Part shown: positions 928 to 58,715 of the stretch, piece by piece
How positions within the stretch are numbered: position 1 is the first letter of the stretch
Layout: the number at the start of each line of letters is the position of its first letter
Notes under the pieces: generated by a model
Seen by the model: the letters and a program-made list of their open reading frames with translations, nothing else
Told to the model about the DNA's origin: nothing
Databases searched by the model: none
Translations under genes and position numbers: made by a program
Assembly (NCBI RefSeq): GCF_030506325.1
Contig: NZ_CP120683.1
Location: forward strand, 6,762,501-6,826,500
DNA: 64,000 bases
From: Tunicatimonas pelagia
Lineage (GTDB): Bacteria > Bacteroidota > Bacteroidia > Cytophagales > Cyclobacteriaceae
Direction of reading: 5' to 3'

Positions 928-1127
928 TTAATGATTAGTGAGTAATGAATGATGATTAATAATCAATGAGCAGTGTGCAATTAAAAGTGAGCCATCGCAC
1001 GATGAATAATAGAAAATGAGAAGCATTTAGCAAGGAGCTTGCAGCAGAGAGTAATGCCTTTGGTTACCTCGCATCAGGAGCCCAGCCATTGAACAATTCA
1101 GCTATTAATCATTAATCATTATCCATT
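928..1127. repeat. Inverted heptamer-phased array
   Basis: From 928 successive 7-mers read TTAATGA, TTAGTGA, GTAATGA, ATGATGA, TTAATAA, TCAATGA, GCAGTGT, GCAATTA, AAAGTGA. A second 7-phased run lies at 1018-1052 (GAGAAGC, ATTTAGC, AAGGAGC, TTGCAGC, AGAGAGT). The right side, 1100-1127, carries the complementary orientation (AATCATT, AATCATT, ATCCATT). The right arm runs into the 3' end of the regulator gene and encodes its last residues. No protein-coding gene was seen in this gap. Confidence 0.6.
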
Positions 1128-2605
1128 ATCCGGTCGAGTTCTTTCTGTACCGCAGCTCTGCGCTTTTCCTTTTCGATGACAATGGGCGGAGCCATGCGTA
1201 CCTGACAATCCGCAATGGCGCAACGCTCGCAAGTAGTATGAACGGTTTTTGTCACTAAATTCGGGTCGCTCAAAAACTGAATCTGCTTTTTTAGCTTACT
1301 ATCAATCAAAAAGCCTACAGTTACGCTGATGCTTTCGTCGGGATTAGATTCATTCGATTTGGCAATAGAAAGGCACAAATACTGGTTCGCTGTTTTCCAG
1401 TACTTAGAGATTTGGGTGCCGGCCATTACGTGGTGGTTGGGCTGCAAACGCTGCTGACTACGTAAAGCTTTAATAATATTAATTGAAATCCACCGGTGGC
1501 AGTAGTGTTCATTTAGCTGATTCGCGTGCGGACTGTGAAACTGAGAGAGGTGCAACTCTTTGGTAAGCTCGTAGTTTGAAAAGTTATCAGTACCGACGAA
1601 GCGCAAGAAAAACACATTTTTAATACCGAAGTACGTTGGCAGAATATTGGTGAGCCGCTGGAACAACATTTCGGGCGTAGCCTCGTATTTTTTCAAGAAT
1701 TGAAGTAAAACAGCTTCATTCCACTTTCGCAAACGGGCAAAACGCGTAACATCCTGAATAACTACCTTTTTTTCCATCAGCAAGGCAGCAGCGAAGTAAG
1801 ATGCGCGGTAATTATTCAGTAGCTCTTCAAAGGTGCCCGGGGCTTGGGGCGGTGTTTCCTGCGGACGTTCTTCTATTGCTAAGTACTGAAATGCTAGCTC
1901 TCGGGCCATTAGAAAATTTTCTTGCGCCCGAGTAAGTCGCTGATTAATCAGCAGCAACTTTCGTTTAGTGTGGTACAGCGAACGAACGTGCTGAAGAATA
2001 GGGTGCTGGGTTAGCTCGGTACGGTCAATCTGTACCCCGAAGTGTTCCTTCAAAGCGATTTCCAGCGATTGTGATACCACAGGTACGGCAGTAGGGAAAG
2101 AGTATTCTACCCGAAATTGAGCTACGGATGCTTCTATATCCGGAAAGTAATTATCGTACAAGTCTTGGTAAGCCCGTAAAGCTACTCCGTAAAATTGCTC
2201 CGTTCGCATTTCGTAGTTTCGGGCCAACTGAAGCAGGGTGCTTAAGAAAGCGTTAATCTTTTCTGGTGCCGCAGAAATTAGTTCAATAATTTTTTGAGCA
2301 TCCAATCCAAACATCTCCAGCGGAAATTCGCGGAAGAATTCAGACTGCATTACGCGGACTATTGGTGCCAAACGTTTAGAAACCCGCAAGGAAACCAATT
2401 GATCGTATTCTACCCCCAATGCTTGAGCTAATTGCAAAATTTTATCACCCTTAGGGTACTTTTTACCCTTCTCAATTTCGCTTAAATAAGAAACAGACAG
2501 GCCAGTGGCGGCTGAAAGCTCTTGAAATGATAAATCATTTTCTAGACGTAACTCTCTGACTTTCAGTCCAAAAATAAATTTTAGGCTGCTTTGCTCATCA
2601 ATCAT
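1112..2605 (-). CDS. XRE-family regulator of the RamB/ScfR type, probable regulator of glyoxylate-cycle genes
   Basis: The 497-residue protein has an N-terminal Cro/XRE helix-turn-helix (about residues 14-70, with LSFQELSAATGLSVSYLSEI). A long middle region follows, matching the ImmA/IrrE-like part of RamB/ScfR proteins, and a C-terminal Cys cluster C-x2-C-x4-C (about 457-466) resembles the DUF2083 tail. Where IrrE proteins carry HExxH this protein reads AREL-AF, so both metal-binding His are gone and protease activity is unlikely. RamB and relatives control isocitrate lyase and malate synthase in response to acyl-CoA or acetate. Here the gene is divergent from aceB across 117 bp with palindromic sites, so local control of aceB/aceA is a strong inference. 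The last codons are built from the heptamer repeat. Confidence 0.85.
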   Translation of the reverse strand: MIDEQSSLKFIFGLKVRELRLENDLSFQELSAATGLSVSYLSEIEKGKKYPKGDKILQLAQALGVEYDQLVSLRVSKRLAPIVRVMQSEFFREFPLEMFGLDAQKIIELISAAPEKINAFLSTLLQLARNYEMRTEQFYGVALRAYQDLYDNYFPDIEASVAQFRVEYSFPTAVPVVSQSLEIALKEHFGVQIDRTELTQHPILQHVRSLYHTKRKLLLINQRLTRAQENFLMARELAFQYLAIEERPQETPPQAPGTFEELLNNYRASYFAAALLMEKKVVIQDVTRFARLRKWNEAVLLQFLKKYEATPEMLFQRLTNILPTYFGIKNVFFLRFVGTDNFSNYELTKELHLSQFHSPHANQLNEHYCHRWISINIIKALRSQQRLQPNHHVMAGTQISKYWKTANQYLCLSIAKSNESNPDESISVTVGFLIDSKLKKQIQFLSDPNLVTKTVHTTCERCAIADCQVRMAPPIVIEKEKRRAAVQKELDRIMDND

Positions 2606-2640
2606 ACTGAAAAATAAAGAAAATTTGTGAAAAAATATTA

Positions 2641-2693
2641 TTAGCGAAATTTCGCTGAATGAAAAAATTTACTATATTTGTATTGTTCGCTAA
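2641..2693. promoter_or_regulatory. Palindromic operator in the regulator-aceB intergenic region
   Basis: A perfect 14-bp palindrome, AGCGAAATTTCGCT, lies at 2643-2656. Counted as half-sites, TTAGCGAA is at 2641-2648, TTCGCTGA at 2651-2658, and a third copy TTCGCTAA at 2686-2693, downstream of the -7 box. The sites bracket the aceB promoter, so a bound dimer would cover the -33 element. The best candidate binder is the divergent RamB-like protein; this is inferred. Confidence 0.65.
2650..2680 (+). promoter_or_regulatory. Probable aceB promoter (Bacteroidota type)
   Basis: TATATTTG at 2673-2680 matches the TAnnTTTG -7 consensus. With a 19-bp spacer it is preceded by TTTC at 2650-2653, one base off the TTTG -33 consensus, inside the 14-bp palindrome. 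Transcription would begin near 2687 and give a leader of about 36 nt. Confidence 0.6.
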
Positions 2694-2722
2694 CTATTTA
2701 GAACTTAGAAAACTGAACCGTT

Positions 2723-4327: not shown

Positions 4328-4362
4328 GCAGCCAAGTAAAAGTCGCTACTAAATGTAATAGT

Positions 4363-4405
4363 CAACGGAGCACATTTCCCTAAGCTGTGCCTGGGAGCTT
4401 CGTTG
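4363..4405 (+). other. Stem-loop between aceB and aceA
   Basis: CAACGGAGC (4363-4371) pairs with GCTTCGTTG (4397-4405) over nine positions with one G-T pair; GCACA/TGTGC can form an alternative inner stem. No T-run follows, so it is not a standard terminator. It may tune expression between the two cistrons or protect mRNA ends. Confidence 0.4.
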
Positions 4406-4415
4406 CAAAAATATA

Positions 4416-4452
4416 ATCGCTAAATCGGCGATACTGGGAATGGTATTTCCCA
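4416..4452. promoter_or_regulatory. Two inverted repeats upstream of aceA
   Basis: ATCGC-N7-GCGAT (4416-4432) is followed by TGGGAA-N6-TTCCCA (4435-4452). The first contains ATCGCTAA, one base from the TTCGCTAA half-site in front of aceB, so the same regulator may act here. No convincing TAnnTTTG box was found, so this is a candidate operator only. Confidence 0.4.
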
Positions 4453-4500
4453 TTTCTAAAATTACTCAATCAATTTAATACACTTTTAAACGTGAAAACT

Positions 4501-5778
4501 ATGGAAACCTCCAACACCCCCAATCTGCTGCAAGACTGGACTACAAACCCTCGCTGGAAGGGCATTGAACGCCCGTACACTGCCGAAGATGTACTAAAGC
4601 TACGGGGTTCGGTAAACATTGAGTACACGCTAGCCCGAAACGGCGCTGAGAAGTTCTGGAAAAAGCTAACCTCACAACCATTTATCGCCGGACTTGGTGC
4701 CCTCACTGGTAACCAAGCAGTACAGGAAGTAACCGCCGGACTGGAAGCAATCTACCTTAGTGGCTGGCAAGTGGCTGCCGATGCTAATCTGGCGGGTGAA
4801 ATGTACCCCGATCAATCATTGTACCCCGCCAATTCTGTTCCTAGCGTTGTAAAGCGAATCAACAATGCTTTGCTTCGTCGCGATCAGATTCAATCAGTAA
4901 CTGGCGAAAGCGATATTGATTGGATGGTTCCTATCATTGCGGATGCTGAAGCAGGATTTGGTGGAAACCTGAATGCTTTTGAATTGATGAAATCATTGAT
5001 AGAAGCGGGAGCAGCGGCAGCTCACTACGAAGATCAGTTATCCTCAGCCAAAAAATGTGGCCACTTGGGTGGAAAAGTACTGGTACCTACCCAAGAAGCC
5101 ATTAATAAACTGGTTGCTGCCCGCCTAGCTGCCGACGTAATGGGAGTTCCTACGGTACTTATCGCCCGAACGGATGCTGATGCCGCCACGCTAATTACTT
5201 CCAATATTGATGAGAGCGATCATCGTTTTATCACCGGAGAGCGCACTAGCGAAGGGTTCTTTCATGTGAACAATGGTATTGAGCAGGGTATTGCCCGCGG
5301 ACTGTCTTACGCCCCGTACTCCGATCTGATTTGGATGGAAACATCTAACCCCGATCTAGGGTATGCCCGCGAGTTTGCGGAAGCGATTCACGAAAAATAT
5401 CCGGGTAAAATGCTAGCGTACAATTGCTCTCCTTCCTTCAACTGGGCGGCCAATTTGAGTCAGGCCGAGATGGAAACGTTCCGAGAAGAGCTAGCCGAGA
5501 TGGGATACAAATTCCAGTTCATTACACTAGCTGGTTTCCACGCGCTGAATACTTCTATGTTTGAGTTATCCAAGGCATACCGAGAACGAGGTATGGCGGG
5601 CTACTCCGCACTACAAGAGCGGGAGTTCGCTCTGCAAGGAGATGGCTTCCGAGCCGTAAAGCACCAAGCATTCGTAGGAACGGGCTACTTCGATGCTATT
5701 CAAAATCTGGTACAAGGTGGAAAATCTTCTACCACTGCCATGGAAGGTAGCACCGAAACCGCTCAGTTTACCCAATAG
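4501..5778 (+). CDS. aceA: Isocitrate lyase
   Basis: Splits isocitrate into glyoxylate and succinate, opening the glyoxylate shunt. The active-site signature KKCGHLGGK with the catalytic Cys sits at about residues 183-191, and the metal-binding part of the barrel ([10 protein letters not shown]) precedes it. Length is about 425 residues, typical of the bacterial short form. An in-frame GTG lies nine bases upstream at 4492, but the ATG at 4501 ([10 protein letters not shown]) is the more natural start. It lies 173 bp downstream of aceB with hairpins between, so it could be co-transcribed or have its own regulated promoter. Confidence 0.97.
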
Positions 5779-5783
5779 AAAAT

Positions 5784-5907
5784 GAATGATGAGTAATGAA
5801 TAATGAATGATAAAGCAGTGGGCTTAGAGTAGGAGGGGGAGTCTCCTAGTATCAGTCCCATTGCTTACAGCCATTACTCATCAATCATCACTCACTATAC
5901 ACTATTA
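5784..5907. repeat. Hairpin element with inverted heptamer arrays (aceA-pckA gap)
   Basis: Left arm 7-mers: GAATGAT, GAGTAAT, GAATAAT, GAATGAT (5784-5811). Right arm: ATTACTC, ATCAATC, ATCACTC, ACTATAC, ACTATTA (5873-5907), in the complementary sense. The centre forms a tight hairpin TAGGAG-N7-CTCCTA near 5829-5848. The element fills nearly the whole gap between aceA and pckA. Confidence 0.65.
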
Positions 5908-5918
5908 AAGATATAACC

Positions 5919-7538
5919 ATGACTGATGTAATGAATTCTCCATCCGTAAAAGCGAATCGTGATGTAAGTCTTATTGAGCGAATTCCTCCGATTAATCTTC
6001 GCTATCAGCTTTCGCCTACTGAATTGGTAGAAGAAGCCTTGGAAAATAAGGAGGGACAACTAACGAGTACCGGAGCACTGATGTGCGACACTGGACAGTT
6101 TACTGGGCGCTCGCCCAAAGACCGTTACTTGGTTAAAGATGCAATAACCGAGAATGAAGTGTGGTGGGGCGACATCAATCAACCTTTTGACCCGGATAAA
6201 TTTGACAGCTTGCAACAACGTATGGTAAAGGAGTTGCAAAATAAGAAGGTGTACGTACGCGATGCTTACGCTTGTGCTGAATCGGCTTACCAACTCAACA
6301 TCCGGGTGTTTACTACCCAAGCGTGGCATAATCTGTTTTGCTACAATATGTTTCTCCGACCAACTGAAAGCGAGTTGCAGGCTTTTGTACCCGAGTTCAC
6401 TATTATTCATATTCCGGAATTCAAAGCTAACCCCGAGACAGACGGCACGCGACAGGAGAACTTTGCTATTATCAACCTGAAAAAGAATATGATTCTGATT
6501 GGGGGCACAGGCTACGCGGGTGAGATAAAAAAAGGAATTTTTTCGGTACTGAATTTTCGGTTGCCCCTACGAGAAAAGGTACTATCTATGCACTGCTCAG
6601 CTAATCAGGGTAAGAAAGGCGATACTGCGCTCTTCTTTGGCCTGTCTGGCACGGGTAAAACCACCCTTTCAGCTGACCCGGATCGCAACCTTATTGGGGA
6701 TGATGAGCACGGTTGGGCTGAAGACAGTATCTTTAATTTTGAAGGTGGTTGCTACGCCAAGGTGATTGATTTAACCCACAAGAAGGAACCCGAAATTTAC
6801 GATGCTATTCGCTACGGTGCCATTGTAGAAAATACCCGATTTCATACCGGCACCCGAGAAGTGGATTACGCCAACATTTCTGTTACACAGAATACGCGGA
6901 CATCCTACCCTATTCATCATATTGATAATGCCTTAACTCCTTCCACCGGAAGTATTCCTAATAATATTTTCTTCTTGACTTGCGATGCTTTTGGGGTGCT
7001 GCCGCCAATTTCCCGGTTAAGCAAGGGGCAAGCAATGTACCACTTTATTTCGGGTTACACGGCTAAAGTGGCGGGTACTGAGGAGGGGGTGAAGGAGCCT
7101 CAAACTACCTTCAGTGCCTGCTTTGGGGCTCCGTTTTTACCGCTACACCCTACCGTTTACGCCCGAATGCTGGGTGAGAAGATGGATGAAAGCCAAGTGA
7201 ATATCTGGCTAGTAAATACTGGCTGGTCAGGTGGTGCCTACGGAGTAGGGGAGCGAATCAGGCTATCGTATACCCGAGCTATGATTACCGCAGCGTTGAA
7301 CGGCGACCTAAATCAAGTAGGCTTTCGGAAACATACCATTTTTGGAGTAGAAATTCCGAACTCTTGCCCGGGAGTGCCGCATAAAGTACTAAGTCCCAGG
7401 GTAATGTGGAACGATGATGAAGTTTTTTATCAAACCAGTAACCGTCTGGCGCAAGCGTTTATAGATAATTTTGCTCAATACCAAGAATACGCCGACGACG
7501 AAATTATGTCAGGAGCTCCCCATCTTCATAATGAATAA
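5919..7538 (+). CDS. pckA: Phosphoenolpyruvate carboxykinase (ATP)
   Basis: Converts oxaloacetate and ATP to PEP and CO2, feeding glyoxylate-shunt carbon into gluconeogenesis. The 539-residue length is typical. The PCK P-loop GLSGTGKTTLS lies at about residues 241-251, followed by the metal/ATP motif LIGDDEHGW. The substrate-site segment GRSPKDRY (about 64-71) is present. The start ATG at 5919 comes 12 bp after the upstream repeat element. The last codons (HLHNE) run into an AATGAAT-type heptamer repeat. Confidence 0.97.
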   Translation: MTDVMNSPSVKANRDVSLIERIPPINLRYQLSPTELVEEALENKEGQLTSTGALMCDTGQFTGRSPKDRYLVKDAITENEVWWGDINQPFDPDKFDSLQQRMVKELQNKKVYVRDAYACAESAYQLNIRVFTTQAWHNLFCYNMFLRPTESELQAFVPEFTIIHIPEFKANPETDGTRQENFAIINLKKNMILIGGTGYAGEIKKGIFSVLNFRLPLREKVLSMHCSANQGKKGDTALFFGLSGTGKTTLSADPDRNLIGDDEHGWAEDSIFNFEGGCYAKVIDLTHKKEPEIYDAIRYGAIVENTRFHTGTREVDYANISVTQNTRTSYPIHHIDNALTPSTGSIPNNIFFLTCDAFGVLPPISRLSKGQAMYHFISGYTAKVAGTEEGVKEPQTTFSACFGAPFLPLHPTVYARMLGEKMDESQVNIWLVNTGWSGGAYGVGERIRLSYTRAMITAALNGDLNQVGFRKHTIFGVEIPNSCPGVPHKVLSPRVMWNDDEVFYQTSNRLAQAFIDNFAQYQEYADDEIMSGAPHLHNE

Positions 7539-7625
7539 TGAATGATGATGAATGCCGCCGTGGAACGGAGCAATTAGCAAATTTACGAGTTCTGAGTTTG
7601 GAAAAGCAGTGCATCAAAAATAAAT

Positions 7626-7683
<58 letters not shown>

Positions 7684-7710
7684 TATCTTTTCAACCACGT
7701 TCCGCAGCAG

Positions 7711-7738
7711 CCCAAAACCTAACCCCTAACCCCCAACA
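7711..7738. repeat. Degenerate heptamer array just upstream of fbp
   Basis: CCCAAAA, CCTAACC, CCTAACC, CCCAACA occupy 7711-7738 and end two bases before the fbp start codon, so the array provides the ribosome-binding region of fbp. Confidence 0.55.
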
Positions 7739-7740
7739 AA

Positions 7741-8784
7741 ATGAATGTATATCCAATAAAAACCGAAGCCAATTCTTCTCAGCAGCTAGGTCAGCCCGTT
7801 GGGGTGACGCTGGATAGATTTATTAAGCGAAAGGAAGGTGAGTTCCCTTATGCTAGTGGTGAGCTTTCTCAGCTCCTGCGGGATATTGCTTTGGCAGCGA
7901 AAATTGTTCACAAAGAGATCAGCCGTTCGGGATTACTCGGGATTGAAGGAGCCTTTGGACGAGAGAATGTGCAGGGGGAATCTCAGCAAAAGCTAGACGT
8001 AATTGCGAACATCCGCTTTACCCGCGCATTTCGCAATGGGGGAGAAGTCTGCGCCATGATTTCGGAAGAAGACGAATTACTCATTCCTATGAATCAGGAT
8101 GCTAGCTACATTGTCGCTATTGATCCGCTCGATGGTTCGTCTAACATCGACGCTAATGTTTCTATCGGGACCATTTTTTCTATCTATCGACGTAAGTCTC
8201 GCCGAGGTACGAAGGTGAAGAACGAAGACTTGCTACAGGCCGGAAGTGAGCAAGTAGCAGCGGGCTACGTACTCTATGGGTCATCTACCATGCTGGTGTA
8301 TACCACGGGCTGCGGAGTGAATGGGTTTACCTACGAACCCTCACTGGGTGAATTCTTTCTATCGCATCCAGATATTAAAACTCCCAAAGATGGAAAGTTG
8401 TATTCCATTAATGAAGGCAACTACCATCAGTTCGACCGGGGCATCCAGGAATACATCAAGTTTTGCTACCGACGGGAAATGTCATCACGGTATATTGGTT
8501 CGCTAGTTGCGGACTTTCACCGGAATCTGTTGAAGGGGGGCGTTTATCTGTATCCACCTACCCGTACGAACCCTGACGGTAAACTTCGCCTCATCTACGA
8601 GTGCAATGCGCTGGCATTTATTGTAGAGCAGGCAGGCGGACAAGCCACAGATGGTAAACGCCGGATACTAGATTTGCAGCCCAACTGTCTGCACGAGCGA
8701 ACGCCTCTCTTCATTGGCTCCGAACTGCTGGTGAATGCTCTCAAAAATTGCCTGATCACTGATCTACGGCCTACCGGAAGCTAA
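7741..8784 (+). CDS. fbp: Fructose-1,6-bisphosphatase, class I
   Basis: Hydrolyses fructose-1,6-bisphosphate to fructose-6-phosphate, the committed gluconeogenic step. The metal-binding sequence [18 protein letters not shown] lies at about residues 127-144, with ISEEDE upstream (about 109-114) and the substrate-site motif [16 protein letters not shown] near 283-298. The 347-residue length is normal for class I. It ends the two-carbon/gluconeogenic series aceB-aceA-pckA-fbp, although repeat arrays separate it from pckA and no promoter was recognised. Confidence 0.97.
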
Positions 8785-14335: not shown

Positions 14336-14406
14336 ACAATTTCGCCTCGGGCAGTCTTTCTTTACTGTATTCCATTTTTTGAACTAATCTGCTAGCAATT
14401 TGACAC

Positions 14407-30044: not shown

Positions 30045-30452
30045 TGTAACATATCCTTTTTTATGGTGAAATTATCATTACGTAAAATACATTGTTTTTA
30101 TAAGCAAAAACACTTTATTGCAAAAATTGGGGTTCGAGGAATACAGCTAAATACCACACAATTAATGATTATTTTACAAGCAAATAATTTAAAATTAAGT
30201 GAAAAAGGCATTTAGCATACTCACTCTAGAACATCGCTAACGATCAGGTTTTGTTTAAGTATTCTTTATTCACCCTGAAACATTGTATTGATTTGAGAAG
30301 AAAATTTGTCGTTTAGAGAAAAACGGTACTTAGTTCGAAAGTAACAATTGTGGCTTCCAACAAAGATCATACACACGTAATGTGTGTAAATTTTTGGTAT
30401 ACTTTTTTTGAATAAGTTTGAAGCTAAGAAGTTACCTAAGAGCAAAAGTAGA
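30045..30452. other. AT-rich intergenic region before the giant surface gene, with probable promoter
   Basis: No gene in about 400 bp. An inverted repeat ACACAC-GTAAT-GTGTGT is at 30371-30387. TTTG at 30393-30396 and TAAGTTTG at 30413-30420 form a -33/-7 pair with a 16-bp spacer, giving a start near 30427 and a leader of about 25 nt. This supports the ATG at 30453 as start of the giant gene. The inverted repeat just upstream of the -33 is a plausible operator. Confidence 0.5.
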
Positions 30453-33400: not shown

Positions 33401-36400
33401 CGGTGGCAGCTTGACTGACATTAACAGCGCGCTGAACGGAGCTACCTTTAATCCTACGGCTGACTACAATGGTTCGGCTACTGTAACCATTGCGACCAAT
33501 GATGGCAATACAGGCACCGATTCAGAAACAGTTAGCATTACAGTGAATGCTGATAATGATGTTCCGGTAGTGGATTTAGATGCCAATGACGACAGCGGAG
33601 CTACTGGCTCTGCCTACGAAGGTAGTTTTACCGAAGATGGTGGTGCAGTGGCTATTGCCGATGATGATGCTGCAATCAGTGATGCGGATGATACCAACTT
33701 GGAAAGCCTCACCGTAGTAATCACGAATCTTCAGGATGGTACGGATGAAAGTCTGTTGGTAGGTGATTTATCATCATTGAACATTAGTAGTAGTTATGCT
33801 AGCGGTACGGGTACACTTACATTAACCGGAAGCTCTTCAGTAGTCAATTACCAGACTGCTTTGCGTCAGATTGTGTACAATAACAGCAGCAATAACCCGG
33901 ATGGCACAGCCCGTAGTATTACGGTGATAGCCAATGATGGGGATGGTAATAGTATGATTGCTACTACAACACTTAGTGTAAACGCGGCCAATGATCCGCC
34001 CAGCAGTAGTAATAACACCGTAAGTACGAATGAAGATACTGATAAAGTTTTTGTGGTTACCGATTTCCCATTCACGGATGTAGATGCGGGAGCAAGTTTA
34101 GATCATGTTGAAATTACGGCGCTGCCCACCGTTGGTACGCTTTTCTTAGATGCTGATAACGATGGCGAAGTAGATAGTGGGGAAACGGTATCCCTCAATC
34201 AAGATATTGCCGCCACTGATCTGACTGACCTGACTTTTAAACCAGCTACCAATGCCAATGGAACCGGGTACGCTAGCTTTACTTTCCGGGTGAACGACGG
34301 AACGGCTTATGCTGCTTCATCTAATACAATGACTATTGATGTAATGGCGGTGAATGACGCCCCGACGGCTACCGATAAAACACTAACTACCGACGAAGAT
34401 ACCCCGGTAATAATTGCCACGACTGATTTGGGTTATAGTGATACCGAAGGCGACGATTTAGCTAAAATCACCATAGACGCTATTCCGACCGATGGTACCT
34501 TGTTTATTGATTCGGATGGCGATGGTGAGATAGGTGGGGGAGAAGCCCTAGCTGATAATGACGAAGTAACCAAGGCACAACTCGATGCCAATGCACTCAA
34601 ATTTTTACCCGCTACCAATGGGAATGGTACTAGCTACGCCGAATTTGATTTTACGGTCAACGATGGAACAGTTGATGCCGCAGCCTCCAATACCATCACT
34701 TTTGATGTAACGGCCATCAATGACGCCCCGACAGCTACCGATGAAACATTAAGTGGAGACGAAGATGTTGCAGTCGTAGTGACTACCGCAGACTTGGGTT
34801 ACAGTGATGTTGATAGCGATCCGCTTAGCAAGATAACGATCACCAGTACTGCTACTGTGGGAACACTATTTTTAGATGGCGACGGTGACGGAGAGGTAGA
34901 TGCTGGCGAAGCTTTGGTTGATAATGATGAGATAACCAAAGCCAAATTAGATGCTGGCGAACTAAAATTTATATCGGCGGCTAACGGTAATGGCACTGGC
35001 TACGATAATTTTAACTTTCGGGTGAACGACGGCACTATCGATGCTACCGCCACGAATACGATCACCTTCAATTTAGCTGCGGTGAATGATGCCCCAACCG
35101 CTGCTGATAATACTGTTACTACTGACGAAGATACTGATTACACCTTTACAGCAACTGATTTCAATTACAGTGATACAGAAAGTAGTGCATTAGATCATAT
35201 TGAAATAACAACTTTGCCCTCCGAAGGAACCTTATTTTTGGATGATAACACTGATGGTATTATCGATGGTGGGGAAGTAGTATTAGCCAATCAGGATATT
35301 ACTGCCGGGGATATTGCTAAATTGAAATTCCGTCCAGCTTTAAACGAAAATGGTGCTAGTTACGATGATTTTGACTTTTTGGTGAATGATGGGTCAGCTT
35401 ATTCGGCTGTAGCCAACACGCTTACGATAGATGTTGATCCCGTAAATGATCCTCCGATAAGTAACAATGCTGATCCCGAAACAATTAATGCTGCCGAAGA
35501 GCAGACGGACGTCGTGCTTAATCTCTCCGCGCCCAGCGATGTAGATAATGACGACAATACATTGGCCATCACGGTTACAACGTTGCCATCATTGGGGGAA
35601 GTTACGCTAGCTGATGGCAATGCGCTTACCCTTAATCAAACTTTAACGATTGCCCAACTTACGAACCTACAGTACGATGCTCCGGCTGACTATAATGGTA
35701 CGGACAATGCCGGAGATTTTGAATATACGGTCAGTGATGGCACCACAACGATTACCCAGACTGTTAGTTTCAATCTATCGACAGTCAATGATGCTCCAAC
35801 GGCTGTTGATAAGACGTTGACAACCAATGAAGATACCCCCGTAGCAATTGCCACTACTGATTTGGGTTACGATGATGTGGATGGCGATGCCTTAGATAAA
35901 ATCACCATAAACGCTATTCCTTCCGATGGCACTTTATTCGTTGATGGCAATGGTAATGATGTGGTAGATGGTAGCGAGGCGTTGGTAGCTACTGACGAAG
36001 TAACCAAAGCACAACTTGATGCCAATGAATTGAAGTTTTTACCTGCTAAGAACGGGAATGGTACTAGCTACGCGGATTTTGATTTTACAGTTAACGATGG
36101 TACGGTTGATGCCGCAGCTTCCAGCACTATCACCTTTGATGTAACGGCGGTGAATGATGCCCCGACAGCTACCGATAAAACACTAACTACTGATGAAGAT
36201 ACTCCAGTAGTGATTGCCACCAGTGATCTAGGCTACAATGATACTGAAGGCAACAATTTAGCTAAAATCATCATAGATGCTATTCCGACCGATGGCACCT
36301 TATTTATTGATTCGGATGGCGATGGTGAGATAGGTGGGGGAGAAGCCCTAGCTGATAATGACGAAGTAACCAAGGCACAACTCGATGCCAATGCACTCAA

Positions 36401-38675
36401 ATTTTTACCCGCTACCAATGGGAATGGTACTAGCTACGCCGAATTTGATTTTACGGTCAACGATGGAACAGTTGATGCCGCAGCCTCCAATACCATCACT
36501 TTTGATGTAACGGCGGTGAATGATGCGCCTTCGGTTAGTGATGTGAGCAAACCAGCTGCCCAAGATAAAGAGACTGCTTTCACAGCGGATGATTTTTCCG
36601 ATCAGTTCTCCGATGTAGACAATAATACCTTAAGTAAAATTCAAGTAATGAGCCTGCCGGCTAACGGGAAGTTACAGCTCAATGGCGTAGATGTCGCTCT
36701 GAATGATGAAATTGCTGTCGCTGATTTAGGTAATCTGGTTTTTGTCCCTGACAGTGGCTTTACCGGCACTACCAGCTTTGGCTGGAACGGTAGTGATGGC
36801 ACCGTTTACGCGGCTACTCCGGCACAAGTCAATATTACGGTGTCTCCCCAGCAAGTTCCGGTGGTTTCGGACGTACAGAAGGCGGGCAATGAGGATGAAA
36901 CAATTACCTTCAATGCCACCGATTTCAGTAGCCAATTTACTGATGCTGATGCCGACACCTTGGTTCGGGTACAGATCGTTAGCTTACCTACCAACGGAAC
37001 ATTGCTGCTGGATGGGGATACCGTAGCGGTTAACGATGAAATCAGTGTGACCGAGCTAAGCCAGCTAACGCTGGTGCCTGCTGCCAATTTCAATGATACT
37101 ATCTCTTTTGCGTGGAATGGCTACGATGGCTTTCAGTATGCTGCTAGCGAAGCTAGTGTATCTGTGGTGCTGACTGATGTTCCCGATGCTCCTACTGTTG
37201 GTGCAGTAAGCAAATCTGGCGCAGTGAGCCAACCCGTTTCATTCGCCACTACCGACTTCACTAGCCAGTTTGCCGATGTGGATGGCGAGGCTCTACAGAA
37301 AATTCAGATCACCACGTTACCCGAAAACGGCACCTTGCTACTGAGTGGAGTAGCGGTCAATCTGGACGATGAAATATCGGTTGATTCGTTAGATCAGCTC
37401 ACCTTTGTTCCGGATGCTACCTTTAGCGGCACGATTACGTTCGGCTGGAACGGCAGTGATGGTACTCTTTATGCGGATACACCGAATACCGTATCAATGG
37501 TCATCATCGGGGGCGGGGCTACCACTACCGACAGCGATCAAGATGGTATTCCAGACGCAGTAGAAATCGGCGACGACCCTGCGAATCCACAAGATAGCGA
37601 TGGCGACGGCACCCCTGATTTCCAGGACATCGATAGTGACAATGACGGGATTCCTGATCGTATTGAAGCGGGTAGCAATCCTGCTCAGCCTACGGATACT
37701 GATGGTGATGGTACGTCCGACTACCAAGATACCGATAGTGATGGTGACGGTGTGCCCGACAGCGTAGAAGCGGGCAGCGATCCACAACAGCCTCGGGACA
37801 GCGATGGTGACGGTACGCCCGACTTCCAAGACACTGATAGCGATAATGATACGATTCCTGATAACGTAGAAGCAGGCGCGAACCCTAGCCAGCTCACGGA
37901 TACCGACCAAGATGGTACCCCCGATATGCTTGATACGGATAGCGATGGTGACGGGATCGCTGATTCTACCGAAGCGGGAGCTGACCCTACGAATCCGGTC
38001 GATACGGACGGCGACGGACTGCCCGATTTCCAAGATGCAGATAGTGACGGCGATGGAATTAGCGATACGGCTGAGGCTGGATCTAACCCTACCCAACCCG
38101 TAGATACCGACCAGGATGGTACGCCCGATTTCCAAGAAACTGATAGTGATAACGACGGTATCGCCGATGCCACCGAAGCGGGAGGCGATCCACAAAACCC
38201 GATTGATACCGATCAAGACGGTGTTCCTGATTTTCAGGAAACGGATAGTGACGGGGATGGTATTACTGATGCCACCGAAGCGGGTGATGACCCGCAGAAC
38301 CCGCGCGACAGCGATGGTGACGGCATCCCTGATTTTCAAGAAACGGATAGTGATGGGGACGGTATTGTTGATGGTGATGATGACGGCTTAATCATTTACG
38401 AAGGTTTTTCACCCAACGCCGATGGTAATAATGAAACTTGGTGGATTGAAGGCATCGAGAACTATCCTGATAATACCGTTCAGATTTACAACCGTTGGGG
38501 CAACAAGCTTTTTGAGGTGCAAGGGTATAATAATGAAGACCGCGCCTGGGGCAGTACTTCTAGTATCGGTCTAGTATTGGGCAATAAAGAAGTACCGGAC
38601 GGGACATATTTTTATATCATTGACTTAGGAGATGGCAGTAAGCCGCGCAAGGGCTTCATTACCATTCACCGATAA
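30453..38675 (+). CDS. Giant type IX-secreted surface protein (calcium-repeat and cadherin-like domains, gliding-type CTD)
   Basis: 2,740 residues from [21 protein letters not shown], a signal peptide. Order: Asp-rich thrombospondin type-3 calcium repeats (about 35-215); a beta-propeller-like region (about 230-485, [12 protein letters not shown]... RVYDPADNF); more type-3 repeats (to about 900); about twelve cadherin/Ig-like units of about 100 residues, most opening with VNDAPTATD and TDEDT (about 910-2,350); eight 34-residue type-3 repeats (2,360-2,631); and a C-terminal gliding-associated domain (CHU_C, type B CTD) with [15 protein letters not shown] and [12 protein letters not shown]. The CTD directs T9SS export and surface attachment. 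Likely an adhesin or stalk. The PorP/SprF-like and PorE-like genes follow directly. A TTG start at 30408 is rejected because it lies in the promoter. Confidence 0.93.
34503..34714 (+). repeat. 212-bp exact duplicate within the giant gene (copy 1)
   Basis: Bases 34503-34714 are identical to 36303-36514, exactly 1,800 bp (600 codons) downstream, while neighbouring cadherin-like units differ. Identity at every third position points to recent duplication or gene conversion. Confidence 0.9.
36303..36514 (+). repeat. 212-bp exact duplicate within the giant gene (copy 2)
   Basis: Second copy of the block at 34503-34714. Just upstream the two copies diverge (Ile/Met and Asp/Asn changes), and just downstream they differ again, so the converted patch has sharp edges. 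Confidence 0.9.
37530..38345 (+). repeat. Eight tandem 102-bp (34-residue) calcium-binding repeats
   Basis: Each unit reads [33 protein letters not shown], with two Asp-rich type-3 motifs per unit; a ninth partial unit leads into the CTD. Units differ at the DNA level, so the array is old, unlike the 212-bp block. It forms a rigid calcium-loaded spacer just before the anchoring domain. Confidence 0.85.
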
Positions 38676-42583: not shown

Positions 42584-43054
42584 ATGATAGATACGCAATC
42601 AGATTTTTTGCCCTTCTTCTTCCAAGAACCAGTCTATGTAGTTAACGAGACGCAAGATGAAACAGCATACCGACCGTTAGGCAGCAATCGCTGTAAAATT
42701 CTTTTGTTGGTAGAAGAGTTGCAAGAACTTCACCTGTCTGATTCGGGAAAGGAGTTACTAGAAAAAATTCTATTGGCTTTAGAGCTTTCGTTTGATGATG
42801 TGTGCTTAGTAAATGTTAGTCAATGCGAAACCCCCGACCACCTGGAAGGTGAATTAGACTTTAAGACCTGTATATCATTCGGAATGCCCCCAGAACCGTG
42901 GCAGTTCAGTAACTTCTCCAGAAAGTATGAGATAATAAGGGATGAGTCGCAACGAGCGTTTTTATGGGCTGACCCCCTAGCCGAGGTTGCAGCTGACGTA
43001 GAAAAGAAAAAAATGCTTTGGCTCAGCTTGAAAGCGTTATTCCTCAGTGAATAG
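42584..43054 (+). CDS. Hypothetical protein, possibly HolD-like (DNA polymerase III psi analogue)
   Basis: 156 residues, no signal peptide. The build (CKILLLVEELQEL, then a helix, LSFDDVCLVNVSQC, a middle strand, then ADPLAEVAADVEKKKMLWLSLKALF) parallels E. coli HolD, in which a short Rossmann-like unit ends in a similar Ala/Leu-rich helix with ALW. The similarity is by eye and unproven. It follows the thioesterase by 11 bp, which suggests co-transcription but says nothing on function. Confidence 0.5.
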   Translation: MIDTQSDFLPFFFQEPVYVVNETQDETAYRPLGSNRCKILLLVEELQELHLSDSGKELLEKILLALELSFDDVCLVNVSQCETPDHLEGELDFKTCISFGMPPEPWQFSNFSRKYEIIRDESQRAFLWADPLAEVAADVEKKKMLWLSLKALFLSE

Positions 43055-43076
43055 CTAAATTGCTGATCAGCCCACG

Positions 43077-43272
43077 GTCGATAGTCTACAGTCCACAGGT
43101 TTAGAAGCTTGAAATGTTGTGGTGTTAATGTTCAATTGTCCGATTGCTCAATTGTTGAATGGTTATTAGTCCACAAGTATTCAGATATTGGGAATTATTC
43201 ATCAATCATTATTCATTAGCTCGTTGGTTCCATCAACAATCGATTTTAAATTCTGTTCTCCGTTCTCCGTTC
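43077..43272. repeat. Composite gap of several different short-period arrays
   Basis: Within the 377-bp gap before gcvP four arrays follow each other: GTCGATA, GTCTACA, GTCCACA (43077-43097, period 7); TTCAATTG, TCCGATTG, CTCAATTG, TTGAATGG (43131-43162, period 8); ATTATTC, ATCAATC, ATTATTC, ATTAGCT (43194-43221, period 7); TTCTCCG, TTCTCCG, TTC (43256-43272, period 7), the last resembling the CCGGTCT array and also preceded by AAATT. No gene is present. Confidence 0.6.
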
Positions 43273-48492: not shown

Positions 48493-48594
48493 TTGAACCC
48501 TGCTAATTAATCAGTACTAACTGCAAAAGAACATTTCTTCTCCAGTAGGGTAAAGCAGTTTTCTCACTTTTGAGTTAAATAATGAATAATTTTA

Positions 48595-48622
48595 GTCATC
48601 AGTCATCAGTCATCAACGATCA
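48595..48622. repeat. GTCATCA heptamer repeat at the permease 3' end
   Basis: Three exact GTCATCA units (48595-48615) and a fourth degenerate unit ACGATCA (48616-48622) reach into the stop region of the permease gene. A weaker TTAAATA, ATGAATA stretch lies just upstream. Confidence 0.6.
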
Positions 48623-52091: not shown

Positions 52092-52120
52092 GAAGTATCA
52101 AGATACCAAAATGCTCGGAA

Positions 52121-53388: not shown

Positions 53389-53404
53389 AGCCGCCTGCGC
53401 CCCG

Positions 53405-53412: not shown

Positions 53413-53451
53413 TAGTGTAAGGTTGTTAAAAAAGAGTGTTTAGAGATTAAG

Positions 53452-53505: not shown

Positions 53506-53538
53506 AAACCGCGGATTGGTGTCCACGGTTTTTCTTTT
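53504..53538. terminator. Bidirectional terminator
   Basis: AAAAACCGCGGA...TCCACGGTTTTT forms a 12-bp stem with one mismatch, followed by CTTTTT on the plus strand and flanked by A-tracts that become T-tracts on the minus strand. It can end both the short plus transcript and the GIN-domain gene from the other side. Confidence 0.8.
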
Positions 53539-53598
53539 TACCGAACCTAGTATCGTTATCCTGAAGGCAACCTATGCAGATAAAAATTTACAATGCCA

Positions 53599-54195: not shown

Positions 54196-54246
54196 AGGAG
54201 TATGTTTATAGCAAGATGCAGCAACTCACATAAAGGTTGCTTCTAT

Positions 54247-54864: not shown

Positions 54865-54926
54865 AGTGTTATAAGTTCTATTGGTAGATTAAGTAATAAA
54901 TAAGCGGCAAAGATAAAGTATTTTTT

Positions 54927-54961
54927 GGGTATTGGATATTGGGAGTTGGGTTTTGGAATAG
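54927..54961. repeat. G-rich heptamer array
   Basis: GGGTATT, GGATATT, GGGAGTT, GGGTTTT, GGAATAG in strict 7-bp phase. Four to five G-runs at regular spacing could form a two- or three-layer G-quadruplex. It lies upstream of the OmpH gene, between it and the MFS gene. Confidence 0.6.
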
Positions 54962-55066
54962 AAAACGGTTTTTAATGTGACGGCGAGTTTTACTGGATAC
55001 CGTATTGCTACTTCTTATTTCACATCTCTCATCCCGGAACAAGTCCGGAATAGGTTCTCACATTTC

Positions 55067-56317: not shown

Positions 56318-56332
56318 AAAGAAGTGAATATT

Positions 56333-56409
56333 GACTGATGGCTGATGAGTGATGAACAATGCTGAACATCAGCAATATAATAAATCATTACTCATTAATC
56401 ATTACTCGT
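56333..56409. repeat. Hairpin element with inverted heptamer arrays (HlyD-MFS gap)
   Basis: Eleven consecutive 7-mers: GACTGAT, GGCTGAT, GAGTGAT, GAACAAT, GCTGAAC, ATCAGCA, ATATAAT, AAATCAT, TACTCAT, TAATCAT, TACTCGT. The sense reverses halfway, where GCTGA-ACA-TCAGC forms the centre. The right arm encodes the last residues of the HlyD-family protein. Confidence 0.7.
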
Positions 56410-57747
56410 TCCACCATTCTGGGTGATTTCAACCCGGCTACTGTCTTTGAGCTGATTAGAGATAGCAATGTATGGCCCGGAAACTATCTCATCTCCGGTT
56501 GTTAGCCCGCTGAGTATTTCAATAAACTCGTAATCACTAATGCCAGTTTCTACAATAACCTTCTCCACTCGCTCTTCATCAACTTTCCTGAAAACAACTT
56601 CATCTAACGTCTCTCCACTGCCGAAAGAGTCTTGACCAGCATCGGCAGTTGGCTCATTCTTATTTTCTTTGTTTCGGGTAGTGACAGCCGAAAGCGGTAC
56701 TGACAGCACATCTTCCTTCCGGTTGGTGAGTACATCTACACTGGCCGTCATACCGGGGCGAAAGGGAAACGGACCGCGGGTTTCCAGCAATTTTTGGTAA
56801 GATGAGTTTAGCAGACGAATACGCACCTCAAATTCCGTAACGGCTTCATTGGTTAATTTTTCGTTAGCTGTATTGGCAATTGAAGTAACCACTCCCTGAA
56901 ATCGATAATTATCGTAACTATAAGCATCCACCTCGATAGATGCTGTATCGCCCAGTGCTACCCGGATAATATCGTTTTCGTTAACATCCACTCGCACTTC
57001 CATTTTACTCAAATCGGCTATGCGAAGCATTTCGGTACCCGCCATCTGTGAGGTGCCTACCACCCGCTCACCTTGCTCTACATCCAGTTTAGACACAATG
57101 CCAGCCATAGGGGCGTAAATACTGGTAAGCGAAAGGTTCTCACGAGCTTCTTCCACCGAAGCTTCGGAAGAGCGAACCGCGTAGCGAGCTGCTTCTACAT
57201 TTTGCCGAGCCGACTCGTAGCTCTGCTGGGCTACCTGAAAATCACTCTGAAATTGCTCAAAATCAGCGTCGGAGATCACCTGATCGTCGTACAGTTTTTG
57301 GTTTCGCTCAAAGGCGAGCCGAGCTCGTTCCAGTTGGGCTTCGGCACTAGCTGCTTGGGCCTGCATTTGAGCTAAGGCTGCTCGTTGCTGGTTCAAGTTA
57401 GCCTGGGTGCGAGAAAGGATTGACTCAAAATTATCGGGGCGAATACGCACTAGTAGTTGATCTTGCTGTACCGAGTCACCTTCCTCCACATTTAGCTCGA
57501 TGATTTCTCCCGGTACTTCGGGAGAAATTTTCACTTCGGTCACCGGCTGTATGGTACCGGAAGCACTCACTCGCTCAATAATTGTGTGTGGTTCTACTGA
57601 GGCAAATCGTACCTCAACGGCTTTTTCGCCACCAATCCATTCGAGCTGACGGGCAATGAGTAATAATACTAAGAGGGTGCCTACTACAATAGCGATAATC
57701 AGAATCGGATTGCGCTTCTTTTTTTTAGTGCGGGCGGTGGTTGGCAT
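56395..57747 (-). CDS. HlyD/RND-type membrane-fusion protein
   Basis: 450 residues. A short basic N-terminus and single membrane segment (about 13-32) are followed by the biotinyl-lipoyl halves (EVPGEIIELNVEEGDSVQQDQLL near 77-99 and SIYAPMAGIVSKLDVEQG), a long coiled coil (about 105-195) and beta-barrel region (about 225-330), the MFP layout of MacA/RND adaptors. It bridges inner and outer membrane. No efflux pump is adjacent: the downstream gene is the MFS transporter, separated by a repeat element, so its partner lies elsewhere. Last residues (NGGTSND) come from repeat DNA. Confidence 0.9.
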   Translation of the reverse strand: MPTTARTKKKKRNPILIIAIVVGTLLVLLLIARQLEWIGGEKAVEVRFASVEPHTIIERVSASGTIQPVTEVKISPEVPGEIIELNVEEGDSVQQDQLLVRIRPDNFESILSRTQANLNQQRAALAQMQAQAASAEAQLERARLAFERNQKLYDDQVISDADFEQFQSDFQVAQQSYESARQNVEAARYAVRSSEASVEEARENLSLTSIYAPMAGIVSKLDVEQGERVVGTSQMAGTEMLRIADLSKMEVRVDVNENDIIRVALGDTASIEVDAYSYDNYRFQGVVTSIANTANEKLTNEAVTEFEVRIRLLNSSYQKLLETRGPFPFRPGMTASVDVLTNRKEDVLSVPLSAVTTRNKENKNEPTADAGQDSFGSGETLDEVVFRKVDEERVEKVIVETGISDYEFIEILSGLTTGDEIVSGPYIAISNQLKDSSRVEITQNGGTSND

Positions 57748-57810
57748 GGTGCGTTTAAGGTAAATAAGAGGTTTAGAATGTTGTAAGGTTGAAAGTTAAG
57801 GAAACCTGTA

Positions 57811-57860
57811 ACTTTTAGCTTATGATCTTCAACTTTTAGCTTATGATCTTCAACTTTTAG
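57811..57860. repeat. Tandem 21-bp repeat, 2.4 copies
   Basis: The 21-mer beginning ACTTTTAGCTTATG is repeated exactly at 57811-57831 and 57832-57852, followed by eight bases of a third copy. 21 is three times seven, and inside each copy CTTTTAG, CTTATGA, TCTTCAA are in 7-bp phase. Confidence 0.85.
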
Positions 57861-57879
57861 AAATAAAGCAAAAAGTACT

Positions 57880-57910
57880 ATTGTCTTTCTACGCACCAAA
57901 TGTATATTCG
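57880..57910 (+). promoter_or_regulatory. Probable promoter of the sirtuin gene
   Basis: ATTG (57880-57883), a 19-bp spacer, and TATATTCG (57903-57910) fit TTTG-N19-TAnnTTTG with one mismatch each. Confidence 0.5.
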
Positions 57911-57927
57911 TTCTGGTTAACATTGAA

Positions 57928-58623
57928 ATGATTATGCGAAAAAGGATAGTGGTTTTAACTGGGGCTGGAATTAGTGCTGAAAGTGGTATTCCTACCTTTC
58001 GGGATGCGGATGGGTTATGGGAAGGGTATGATGTAATGGAAGTGGCTACCCCCGAAGGCTGGAAGAAAAATCCGGCGTTGGTGTTAGACTTTTATAATCA
58101 GCGGCGCAAAGCAGCCTTGCAGGTTAAACCTAATGCTGGTCATCAAGCACTGGTTGACTTGGAAACAGATTATGAAGTAGTAGTTATTACCCAAAACGTA
58201 GACAATCTGCACGAACGAGCGGGTTCTAGTCGAGTTATTCATTTACACGGTAGTCTGTTTGAATCGCGGAGTACGGCTGATGAGTCGTTAGTTTACGATA
58301 TTGATGGTTGGGAGCTAAAACTGGGTGATGTCTGCAAAAAAGGCGCGCAGTTACGTCCCAATATTGTCTGGTTTGGTGAGATGGTTCCGATGATGGAAGT
58401 CGCTCAGCGAGAAGCCACCCGAGCTGATATTTTTATGGTAATCGGTACTTCGCTACAAGTGTATCCGGCTGCCGGATTATTGTACGATGTTCCCGAAGGT
58501 ATTCCAATCTACATTATTGACCCTAGCATTCCTGATTATCACCCACAGCCCAATATTACTGCCATTGTTGAACCAGCCAGCTTGGGAGTACCGAAAGTAG
58601 TGCAACAACTTGTTGAAGAGTAG
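57928..58623 (+). CDS. cobB: Sir2-family NAD-dependent protein deacylase without zinc cysteines
   Basis: 231 residues, single Rossmann-type domain. GAGISAESGIPTFRDADGLW (about 12-31) and QNVDNLHERAGS with HLHGS (catalytic His) fit the sirtuin core, and IGTSLQVYPAAGL the NAD pocket. The usual four zinc Cys are absent: the region between HLHGS and LRPNIVWFGE has one Cys only (GDVCKKG). Such zinc-less short sirtuins occur in Bacteroidota. It removes acyl groups from lysines, with acetyl-CoA synthetase as a classical target, but acs is not in this window. The second ATG (57934) may be the real start. Confidence 0.9.
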   Translation: MIMRKRIVVLTGAGISAESGIPTFRDADGLWEGYDVMEVATPEGWKKNPALVLDFYNQRRKAALQVKPNAGHQALVDLETDYEVVVITQNVDNLHERAGSSRVIHLHGSLFESRSTADESLVYDIDGWELKLGDVCKKGAQLRPNIVWFGEMVPMMEVAQREATRADIFMVIGTSLQVYPAAGLLYDVPEGIPIYIIDPSIPDYHPQPNITAIVEPASLGVPKVVQQLVEE

Positions 58624-58715
58624 GATGGTAGAGGGTAGAATAGTAAAAGGTAGAAGGGTGAAAGGGCGTACAGACCATCCACCTTTAACCCTCTACCCTC
58701 CAACCTTTCTACCCC
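58624..58715. repeat. Hairpin element with inverted heptamer arrays (sirtuin-helicase gap)
   Basis: Left side: GGTAGAG, GGTAGAA, TAGTAAA, AGGTAGA, AGGGTGA, AAGGGCG (58628 on). Right side: ACCTTTA, ACCCTCT, ACCCTCC, AACCTTT, CTACCCC (58681-58715). GGTAGAAGGGTGAAAGG and CCTTTAACCCTCTACC pair with a single bulge. It overlaps the 3' end of the helicase gene and may terminate both converging genes. Confidence 0.65.

What the first reader, a model, noticed from the sequence alone, without database searches (positions are those of the whole stretch)
928..58715. Family of intergenic arrays that conserve a 7-bp period but not the sequence
At least a dozen gaps or gene ends hold runs of 7-mers in strict phase: TTAATGA-type (928-990), GAATGAT (5784), CCGGTCT (7627), CCTAACC (7718), GGTAAAA (15555), GCCCCAT (19078), GTCTACA, ATTATTC and TTCTCCG (43077-43272), GTCATCA (48595), GGGTATT (54927), GACTGAT/TAATCAT (56333), a 21-mer (57811) and GGTAGAA/ACCCTCT (58628). 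Unit sequences are unrelated, but period, intergenic location and often an inverted layout around a central hairpin are shared. Sequence-conserved MITE or REP families would not look like this. It suggests a process that writes or expands 7-base units locally, such as replication slippage with a 7-nt step or templated copying, or selection for helical phase or a structure. I know of heptamer repeats in cyanobacteria (STRRs) but not a description of this mix.
Basis: partly seen in the sequence, partly recalled or inferred. Interest (0 to 1): 0.8.

Follow-up and report, generated by a model that had tools for sequence, protein, structure and literature searches.

The report
Degenerate seven-base word arrays between genes
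The gaps between genes of this Bacteroidota genus carry arrays of a loosely spelled seven-base word that keeps its core and spacing but lets one letter vary freely, which points to recognition of the word rather than simple copying errors.

Summary
The period-7 signal is real and intergenic: 882 gaps (1.91 Mb of the own genome) hold 67 lag-7 arrays, against 2, 1, 13 and 0 at lags 5, 6, 8 and 9; shuffles give about 0.5. But the units are not unrelated: 57 of 67 fall into four word families, 41 into one degenerate word, TRRTGAN. Two things are mixed. (1) Word arrays, chiefly TRRTGAN: core and spacing kept, free letters random; neighbouring units are no more alike than chance, so slippage did not leave them as they are. 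They mostly point inwards in pairs, the arms are not co-complementary, and 4 of 6 are kept at the same junction in a sister species. (2) Perfect arrays such as CCGGTCT (7626-7683), slippage-like, at the edge of a modular repeat amplified in this species, to which 43050-43272 also belongs. Nearest published parallel: the convergent GGGANTN heptads of Xanthomonas, another word in another phylum. Best reading: binding-site arrays read in 7-bp steps; the binding protein is inferred, not found.

The parts
928..979 (+). TRRTGAN word array, left (inward) arm
   Evidence: lag-7 segment 928-979; degenerate arms in G003 and G002 by eye
1104..1131 (-). TRRTGAN-type word array (reads TCAYYAN on +), right arm of the 928 pair
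   Evidence: (ATTAATC, CATTATC rows)
5782..5814 (+). TRRTGAN array directly after the isocitrate lyase-like gene, left arm
   Evidence: G003 has a TRRTGAN array after the same stop codon, G002 a GC hairpin instead; gene name
5878..5913 (-). TRRTGAN array, right arm of the 5782 pair (TCATCAATCATCACTCACTA)
7528..7560 (+). TRRTGAN array overlapping the end of the PEPCK gene
   Evidence: present with substitutions in G003
7551..7625 (+). dispersed repeat module leading into the CCGGTCT array
   Evidence: other copies at 80-93% identity in the own genome and 89-90% in G001
7626..7683 (+). perfect CCGGTCT array, 8.3 copies
   Evidence: three units in a row at 116 overlapping places in the own genome, 0 for the reversed pattern
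7718..7737 (+). CCTAACC, 2.9 copies; partly kept in G003
43050..43272 (+). modular dispersed repeat: GTCNAYN words, TCAYYAN words (43194-43218), conserved module, CCGTTCT words (43255-43272)
   Evidence: stretches 79-89% identical to other own-genome gaps, over non-repeat sequence too; not seen in the G003 orthologue (by eye)
48594..48615 (-). TRRTGAN-family array (AGTCATC x3.1)
54925..54956 (+). degenerate TTGGGNN array; different spellings in G003 and G001
56332..56355 (+). TRRTGAN-type array (TGACTGA row), left arm
56377..56410 (-). TRRTGAN array (TCAYYAN on +), right arm, overlapping the end of an HlyD-like gene
57810..57860 (+). 21-bp tandem repeat x2.4 (3 x 7); no match elsewhere in the 1.66 Mb sample; not seen in G003 or G002
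58624..58708 (.). GGTAGAA-type and ACCCTCT-type runs facing inwards between convergent genes; not seen in G003 or G002

Best explanation
Most of the arrays are runs of one degenerate seven-base word, TRRTGAN, placed in intergenic regions and often as two arrays that point towards each other from the two ends of the gap. The core letters (T, TGA) and the 7-bp spacing are kept while the R positions and above all the seventh base vary. I infer that the word is recognised in unspaced 7-bp steps by an oligomerising nucleic-acid-binding protein, the way a ribbon-helix-helix protein reads heptad arrays, so that selection acts on the core and the step and not on the free letter. A second, separate class (perfect CCGGTCT-type arrays) is most simply made by replication slippage and lies at the edge of a modular repeat amplified in this species. 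Shown: word family, phase, random free letter, no slippage signature, inward layout, retention at several orthologous sites. Inferred: the binding protein and any function.
For: TRRTGA pairs in own gaps lie 7/14/21/28/35 bp apart in 197/132/75/32/15 cases; other spacings have 0-5 except 3, 10, 11 and 17 (28, 16, 9, 14); the reversed motif gives 8/5/4 at 7/14/21 and coding DNA 15/8/14. In lag-7 arrays of this word the adjacent-unit change rate is T .12, R .43, R .22, T 0, G .10, A .05, N .69. Free positions agree between neighbours as often as composition predicts: 57/108, 82/108, 24/108 against .53.79.27; 3 of 57 chains of three or more units are uniform. Inward orientation in 27/27 convergent, 86/107 tandem, 14/24 divergent unit pairs; in tandem gaps alike at 3' (43/54) and 5' (43/53) gene ends (summed). 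Of 6 own gaps with an array, 4 have one in G003; of 35 without, none; one more is kept at L065:13242. Substitutions 4/91 at core and 12/63 at free sites, p 0.006. Arms not co-complementary, p 0.88. Precedent for unspaced 7-bp steps, direct and inverted: parS of plasmid pSM19035, WATCACW (PMC9499535, passages).
Against: No binding protein was found: the Omega_Repress search was empty, but its control did not ring either, and no other DNA-binding family was searched. Other words, one with period 8, would need further readers. The core is fixed by the regular expression, and the arrays (26 arrays, 107 units) were kept only if at least half of their units read T..TGA and not all were alike, so core constancy is partly by choice; the randomness of N is not. 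Orientation counts are adjacent unit pairs, not independent arrays. Orthologue data are few, come from regions chosen because they hold arrays, and the eight arm alignments were picked by eye. Arrays are lost or replaced within the genus (L076:3020 not seen in G001 and G002; 5779 not in G002; L065:4857 in none of three relatives).
Confidence: 0.4

Rival explanations
1. Replication slippage with a preferred 7-nt step, followed by point mutation (the published view of heptanucleotide repeats, Mrazek et al. 2007 as cited in the papers seen).
For: CCGNTCT chains are uniform (7 of 7 chains of three or more units; 51/51 neighbours agree at the one position left free, 0.83 expected) and 5 of 41 TRRTGAN arrays and 5 of 10 unassigned arrays are perfect; heptamers dominate over 5, 6, 8 and 9; at L238:18475 own and G003 right arms differ by what looks like one whole 7-bp unit; GTGTTNNN neighbours agree slightly more than expected at two of three free positions (15/34 each, 0.33 and 0.39 expected).
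Against: TRRTGAN neighbours agree no more than chance and GTCNAYN neighbours less (3/23, 8/23, 6/23 against .31.50.43); variation sits at particular positions; GTGTTNNN has period 8.
Confidence: 0.2
2. The arrays are arms or remnants of dispersed mobile elements (MITE or BOX-like), spread by an unknown transposase or by recombination between the arrays.
For: A modular element occurs at 18 own-genome places besides the query at 75-90% identity over 120 bases or more (60 matches in all, many of them only the array; 40 of 207 candidates were scored), with word arrays in it; only partial matches of 31-72 bases in 3 of 10 relatives, none in G003 (40 candidates scored per larger genome); not seen, by eye, in the orthologous gap of the one or two relatives compared at each of five own loci.
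Against: Simple TRRTGAN pairs have different centres by eye; no target duplication or clean empty site was seen; partners in a pair are no more alike than partners from different loci; arrays are retained in G003 at 4 of 6 gaps.
Confidence: 0.25
3. Hairpins: the inverted arms act as terminators or mRNA 3' stabilisers.
For: Two relatives have a GC-rich hairpin where own has an array or the modular element (G002 at 5779, G001 at L243:10190); convergent gaps have the highest rate, 9 of 81.
Against: Own arms are not more complementary than arms of other loci (12.9 against 13.5, p 0.88); arrays also occur in 8 of 156 divergent gaps against 31 of 457 tandem ones (genes called only as long ORFs).
Confidence: 0.1
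4. Stop-codon cassettes: TRR-TGA-N gives a double stop that shifts frame with each unit.
For: TAA, TGA and TAG make 280 of 286 TRR triplets; TGG 6 seen against 11.1 expected.
Against: Equally frequent in antisense at gene 5' ends (43/53) with similar spelling there.
Confidence: 0.05

Closest known systems
GGGAATC / (GGGANTN)n heptad arrays of Xanthomonas and GGGGA(C/T)T of Nostoc (PMC4692102; passages and section 10 seen)
   Same: 7-bp units with fixed and free positions, 186 and 183 arrays per genome, 89% and 93% intergenic, 70 and 75 cases of two arrays in convergent orientation, mostly between the same genes in two species
   Different: G-rich and discussed as G-quadruplex; TRRTGAN has no G-run. 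Here arm complementarity and neighbour similarity were tested as well.
TAACTGA direct repeats of Beggiatoaceae, Cyanobacteria and five Bacteroidetes (PMC4679880; abstract, passages, section 12 seen)
   Same: intergenic heptamers, stop codons in all frames on one strand, patchy distribution, mixed heptamer assemblages in some Bacteroidetes
   Different: one exact unit with related heptamers rare as repeats, mostly just upstream of start codons in the main species; here a degenerate word, facing pairs, both gene ends
parS heptads WATCACW of plasmid pSM19035, bound by the RHH protein omega/ParB (PMC9499535; passages seen)
   Same: unspaced 7-bp units, direct and inverted, one dimer per unit
   Different: word differs (TCAC core against TCAYYAN), few sites on a plasmid, no omega homologue found here (control silent)
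BOX elements of Streptococcus (PMC3049150; passages seen)
   Same: modular non-coding dispersed repeats of variable size, spread in one lineage (compare the modular class here)
   Different: BOX has terminal inverted repeats and target duplications; neither was shown here
Heptanucleotide simple sequence repeats of bacterial genomes (Mrazek 2007, seen only as cited in PMC4679880 and PMC4692102)
   Same: 7 the favoured unit length; CCGGTCT class fits
   Different: TRRTGAN arrays are mostly not runs of identical units

Membership tests
Slippage-type heptanucleotide SSR | neighbouring units are copies of each other | tested here: not met
   TRRTGAN: N 24/108 identical, 0.27 expected; 3 of 57 chains uniform. 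Met for CCGNTCT: 7 of 7 chains uniform
Slippage-type heptanucleotide SSR | unit length 7 over-represented between genes | tested here: met
   67 against 2, 1, 13, 0 at lags 5, 6, 8, 9
Xanthomonas-type degenerate heptads | fixed and free positions within a 7-bp unit | tested here: met
   with the selection caveats stated
Xanthomonas-type degenerate heptads | convergent array pairs between genes | tested here: met
   27/27 (convergent gaps) and 86/107 (tandem gaps) unit pairs inward; 18 pairs listed
Xanthomonas-type degenerate heptads | G-tracts able to form quadruplexes | tested here: not met
   consensus TRRTGAN has no G-run
TAACTGA repeats | unit TAACTGA | tested here: not met
   consensus and unit lists
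omega/parS heptads | unspaced 7-bp repeats in direct and inverted order | tested here: met
omega/parS heptads | WATCACW sequence | tested here: not met
   word is TCAYYAN on that strand
omega/parS heptads | cognate Omega-type RHH protein | tested here: inconclusive
   PF07764 in 0 of 4 genomes, control rang in 0 of 14
MITE / BOX (modular class only) | dispersed sequence-conserved copies | tested here: met
MITE / BOX (modular class only) | terminal inverted repeats and target site duplication | tested here: inconclusive
   none seen by eye; no clean empty site in the compared gaps
MITE / BOX (modular class only) | mobilising transposase with matching ends | not tested
   not searched

The most novel reading that the evidence does not exclude
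This genus uses a small vocabulary of degenerate words (TRRTGAN, GTCNAYN, TGARATR at 7 bp; GTGTTNNN at 8 bp), each with its own fixed step, written inwards from both ends of many gaps and read by unknown oligomerising proteins as a genome-wide boundary code; words can be swapped at the same gene junction between species, and the Xanthomonas GGGANTN heptads are an independent instance of the same architecture.
Probability: 0.22. Interest if true: 0.85.

Novelty: new variant of a known kind. Interest (0 to 1): 0.57.

Why it matters
Heptamer arrays between bacterial genes have been explained by polymerase slippage or, in Xanthomonas and Nostoc, discussed as G-quadruplexes. Here a large family has neither a slippage signature nor G-runs, yet has the same convergent layout.

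Tried and rejected
Hairpin selection was tested by comparing each array with its own partner and with partners of other loci: no excess. Stop-codon cassettes were considered because TRR is nearly always TAA, TGA or TAG; disfavoured because the arms are as common in antisense at gene 5' ends. Terminators only: disfavoured because divergent gaps carry arrays too. Known RNA families: none in the window, L149, L150 and L076 at the gathering threshold. Omega repressor: no hit, but the control was silent. The polarity 'G-rich left, C-rich right' for other words was looked at; it also holds weakly in most halves of gaps without arrays, so it was not used as evidence.

Limits and rows dropped. In some searches, segments that also fit a shorter period were dropped (for the shuffles they were not). 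Gaps under 40 bp or 60 bp were left out; one search also left out gaps over 600 bp and gaps over 330 bp. Genes were called only as long ORFs, so contexts are approximate. The own sample is 80 stretches of 20 kb (79 spaced evenly, one shifted), the window, and 14 stretches near the window and near L076. The family expressions are partly loose.
Full report
Setting. The window is G000:C1:6762501-6826500 of a 7.29 Mb genome. A DnaG search names two uncultured Flammeovirgaceae MAGs (83 and 91% amino-acid identity) and a Cyclobacteriaceae MAG (46%) as relatives, so the host is most likely a Bacteroidota bacterium. Three held genomes share its genus: G001, G002, G003.

The observation. In the window's intergenic DNA, exact runs occur at lags 7, 14 and 21 and singly at 16 and 23. 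I took 80 stretches of 20 kb and later 14 more own stretches. In 882 gaps, tolerant arrays number 67 at lag 7 and 25 at lag 14, against 2, 1, 13 and 0 at lags 5, 6, 8 and 9; 20 dinucleotide shuffles of nearly the same set give means of 0.25 to 0.75. In the first 1.66 Mb, 54 of 65 such arrays were intergenic.

The units are related. Of the 67 arrays, 41 belong to the word TRRTGAN, 9 to GGAGACC/CCGGTCT, 4 to TGARATR, 3 to GTCNAYN, and 10 to none of these. Two TRRTGA hexamers in a gap stand 7, 14, 21, 28 or 35 bp apart in 197, 132, 75, 32 and 15 cases; other spacings have 0 to 5, except 3 (28), 10 (16), 17 (14) and 11 (9). The reversed motif gives 8, 5 and 4 at 7, 14 and 21, and coding DNA, eight times larger, 15, 8 and 14. 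Three units in a row occur 367 times (overlaps counted) in the own genome and 58, 63 and 149 times in G001, G002 and G003, with 0-2 for the reversed pattern; 21 of the other 94 genomes have some, usually few, and in several of these (such as G056, G077, G091) the reversed pattern is as frequent or more so. CCGGTCT x2 is likewise a word of this genus: 150 hits in own, 9, 0 and 26 in G001, G002 and G003, and 1 hit in each of 3 of the other 55 genomes.

Two kinds of array. In TRRTGAN arrays found by lag-7 similarity (kept if at least half of the units read T..TGA and not all were alike), the change rate between neighbours is 0.12, 0.43, 0.22, 0, 0.10, 0.05 and 0.69 for T, R, R, T, G, A and N (26 arrays, 107 units). 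With chains picked by the core, the free positions of neighbours agree as often as composition predicts (57/108, 82/108, 24/108 against 0.53, 0.79, 0.27), and 3 of 57 chains are uniform. GTCNAYN neighbours agree less than expected (3/23, 8/23, 6/23 against 0.31, 0.50, 0.43; 0 of 14 uniform). GTGTTNNN neighbours agree as expected at one free position and slightly more at two (15/34 each against 0.46, 0.33, 0.39; 1 of 20 uniform). CCGNTCT chains are all uniform (7 of 7), agreeing 51/51 at their one free position against 0.83 (all). Slippage therefore suits the CCGGTCT class but not TRRTGAN. GTGTTNNN repeats at 8 bp (87 pairs at 8, 48 at 16, 26 at 24; 16 at 23 and 14 at 15), so 7 is a property of some words, not a universal step.

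Layout. TRRTGAN arrays occur in 31 of 457 tandem, 9 of 81 convergent and 8 of 156 divergent gaps. Counted as adjacent unit pairs, they read inwards in 27 of 27 (convergent), 86 of 107 (tandem) and 14 of 24 (divergent) cases; in tandem gaps alike at 3' ends (43 of 54) and 5' ends (43 of 53). This speaks against pure terminators and against stop-codon cassettes. Eighteen pairs with two or more units per arm were compared: own partners are no more complementary than partners from other loci (mean 12.9 against 13.5, p 0.88).

History. Between own and G003, 41 orthologous gaps were found in regions chosen around the window and L076; 6 carry TRRTGAN arrays in own and 4 of these in G003 as well (W:720 is degenerate there, L076:5596 lacks it), while none of the 35 others does. 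Two further own gaps were compared by small fetches: L065:13242 is kept in G003 but holds other words in G001 and G002; L065:4857 has no array in the G001 and G002 pieces or in either G003 piece, the G003 junction being interrupted by about 3 kb. So 5 of 8 are kept in G003. In eight ungapped arm alignments chosen by eye, 4 of 91 core and 12 of 63 free sites differ (p 0.006). Arrays are also lost or replaced: L076:3020 is kept in G003 but not seen in G001 and G002, and G002 has a GC-rich hairpin at the 5779 gap. At window 18980 own, G001 and G003 all have facing purine- and pyrimidine-rich runs with different spellings (by eye).

The modular class. The CCGGTCT array and the 43050-43272 arrays lie in longer dispersed repeats: words, a conserved module ending ...TTTTAAATTC, CCGGTCT units, sometimes a further module. 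A query with one long copy gives 60 matches in the own genome, of which 18 besides the query cover 120 bases or more at 75-90% identity and many only the array; 40 of 207 candidates were scored, so this is a lower bound (17 copies shown). The core gives only partial matches of 31-72 bases in 3 of 10 relatives, none in G003, again with 40 candidates scored in the larger genomes. It was not seen, by eye, in the orthologous gap of the one or two relatives compared at W:43055, W:7539, L076:15904, L243:6845 and L243:10190; G001 has a GC-rich hairpin at the last. It has no Rfam match, and I saw no target duplication.

Mechanism. Shown: a degenerate word with kept core and step, random free letter, inward layout, retention with substitutions mainly at free sites. 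Inferred: recognition of the core in 7-bp steps by an oligomerising protein. The model is the heptad parS of pSM19035, WATCACW, bound in direct or inverted order by an RHH protein (PMC9499535, passages). The Omega family search was empty but uninformative. I give this about 0.4, dispersed-element arms 0.25, slippage 0.2.

What is known. PMC4692102 (passages and section 10) describes 186 and 183 GGGAATC/(GGGANTN)n arrays in two Xanthomonas species, mostly intergenic, with 70 and 75 convergent pairs, mostly between the same genes in both species but with much length and sequence variation. PMC4679880 (abstract, passages, section 12) describes TAACTGA repeats, also in five Bacteroidetes, and cites the idea that 7 nt reflects polymerase contact. 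PMC4060949 (passages) surveys 4-11 bp repeats as normal or weakly over-represented in most genomes. Full-text searches listed no description of TRRTGAN or of this layout in Bacteroidota; most subscription papers are not in that library. Cyanobacterial STRRs are recalled from memory apart from the Calothrix mention in PMC4692102. I file this as a new variant of a known kind: same architecture as the Xanthomonas heptads, different word, and a G-quadruplex cannot be the common reason.

Noticed in passing
L045:10906, L049:18233, L039:17055 and others: A second degenerate word family with period 8, GTGTTNNN (87 pairs at 8 bp in own gaps; arrays listed), also inside the modular repeat.
   Followed up: partly
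window 37598-38373: 102-bp tandem repeats (70% matches) inside the 2755-aa ORF 30408-38675; a coding repeat.
   Followed up: no
G003 gap orthologous to window 61274-61508: An insertion of some 250 bp or more with inverted ends (GGTGCTTGGAGCCGG ... CCGGCTCCAAGCACC), MITE-like, not seen in own or G002 (by eye).
   Followed up: no
G003 gap orthologous to L065:13242: A short GC-rich insertion (CCGCGCGGCGGCCGC) inside a TRRTGAN arm, absent from own.
   Followed up: no
G003 gap orthologous to window 14336-14406: A run of GGTGAAA units where own has a plain 70-bp gap: a heptamer array present in one species only.
   Followed up: no
window 4492-8784: The arrays at 5782 and 7528-7737 separate isocitrate lyase-like, PEPCK and fructose-1,6-bisphosphatase genes, a gluconeogenesis-like cluster.
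   Followed up: no
L069:5980-6128: A near-perfect array of about 21 GAACCCA units, the highest-scoring one listed (score 142), at the border of a called gene.
   Followed up: no
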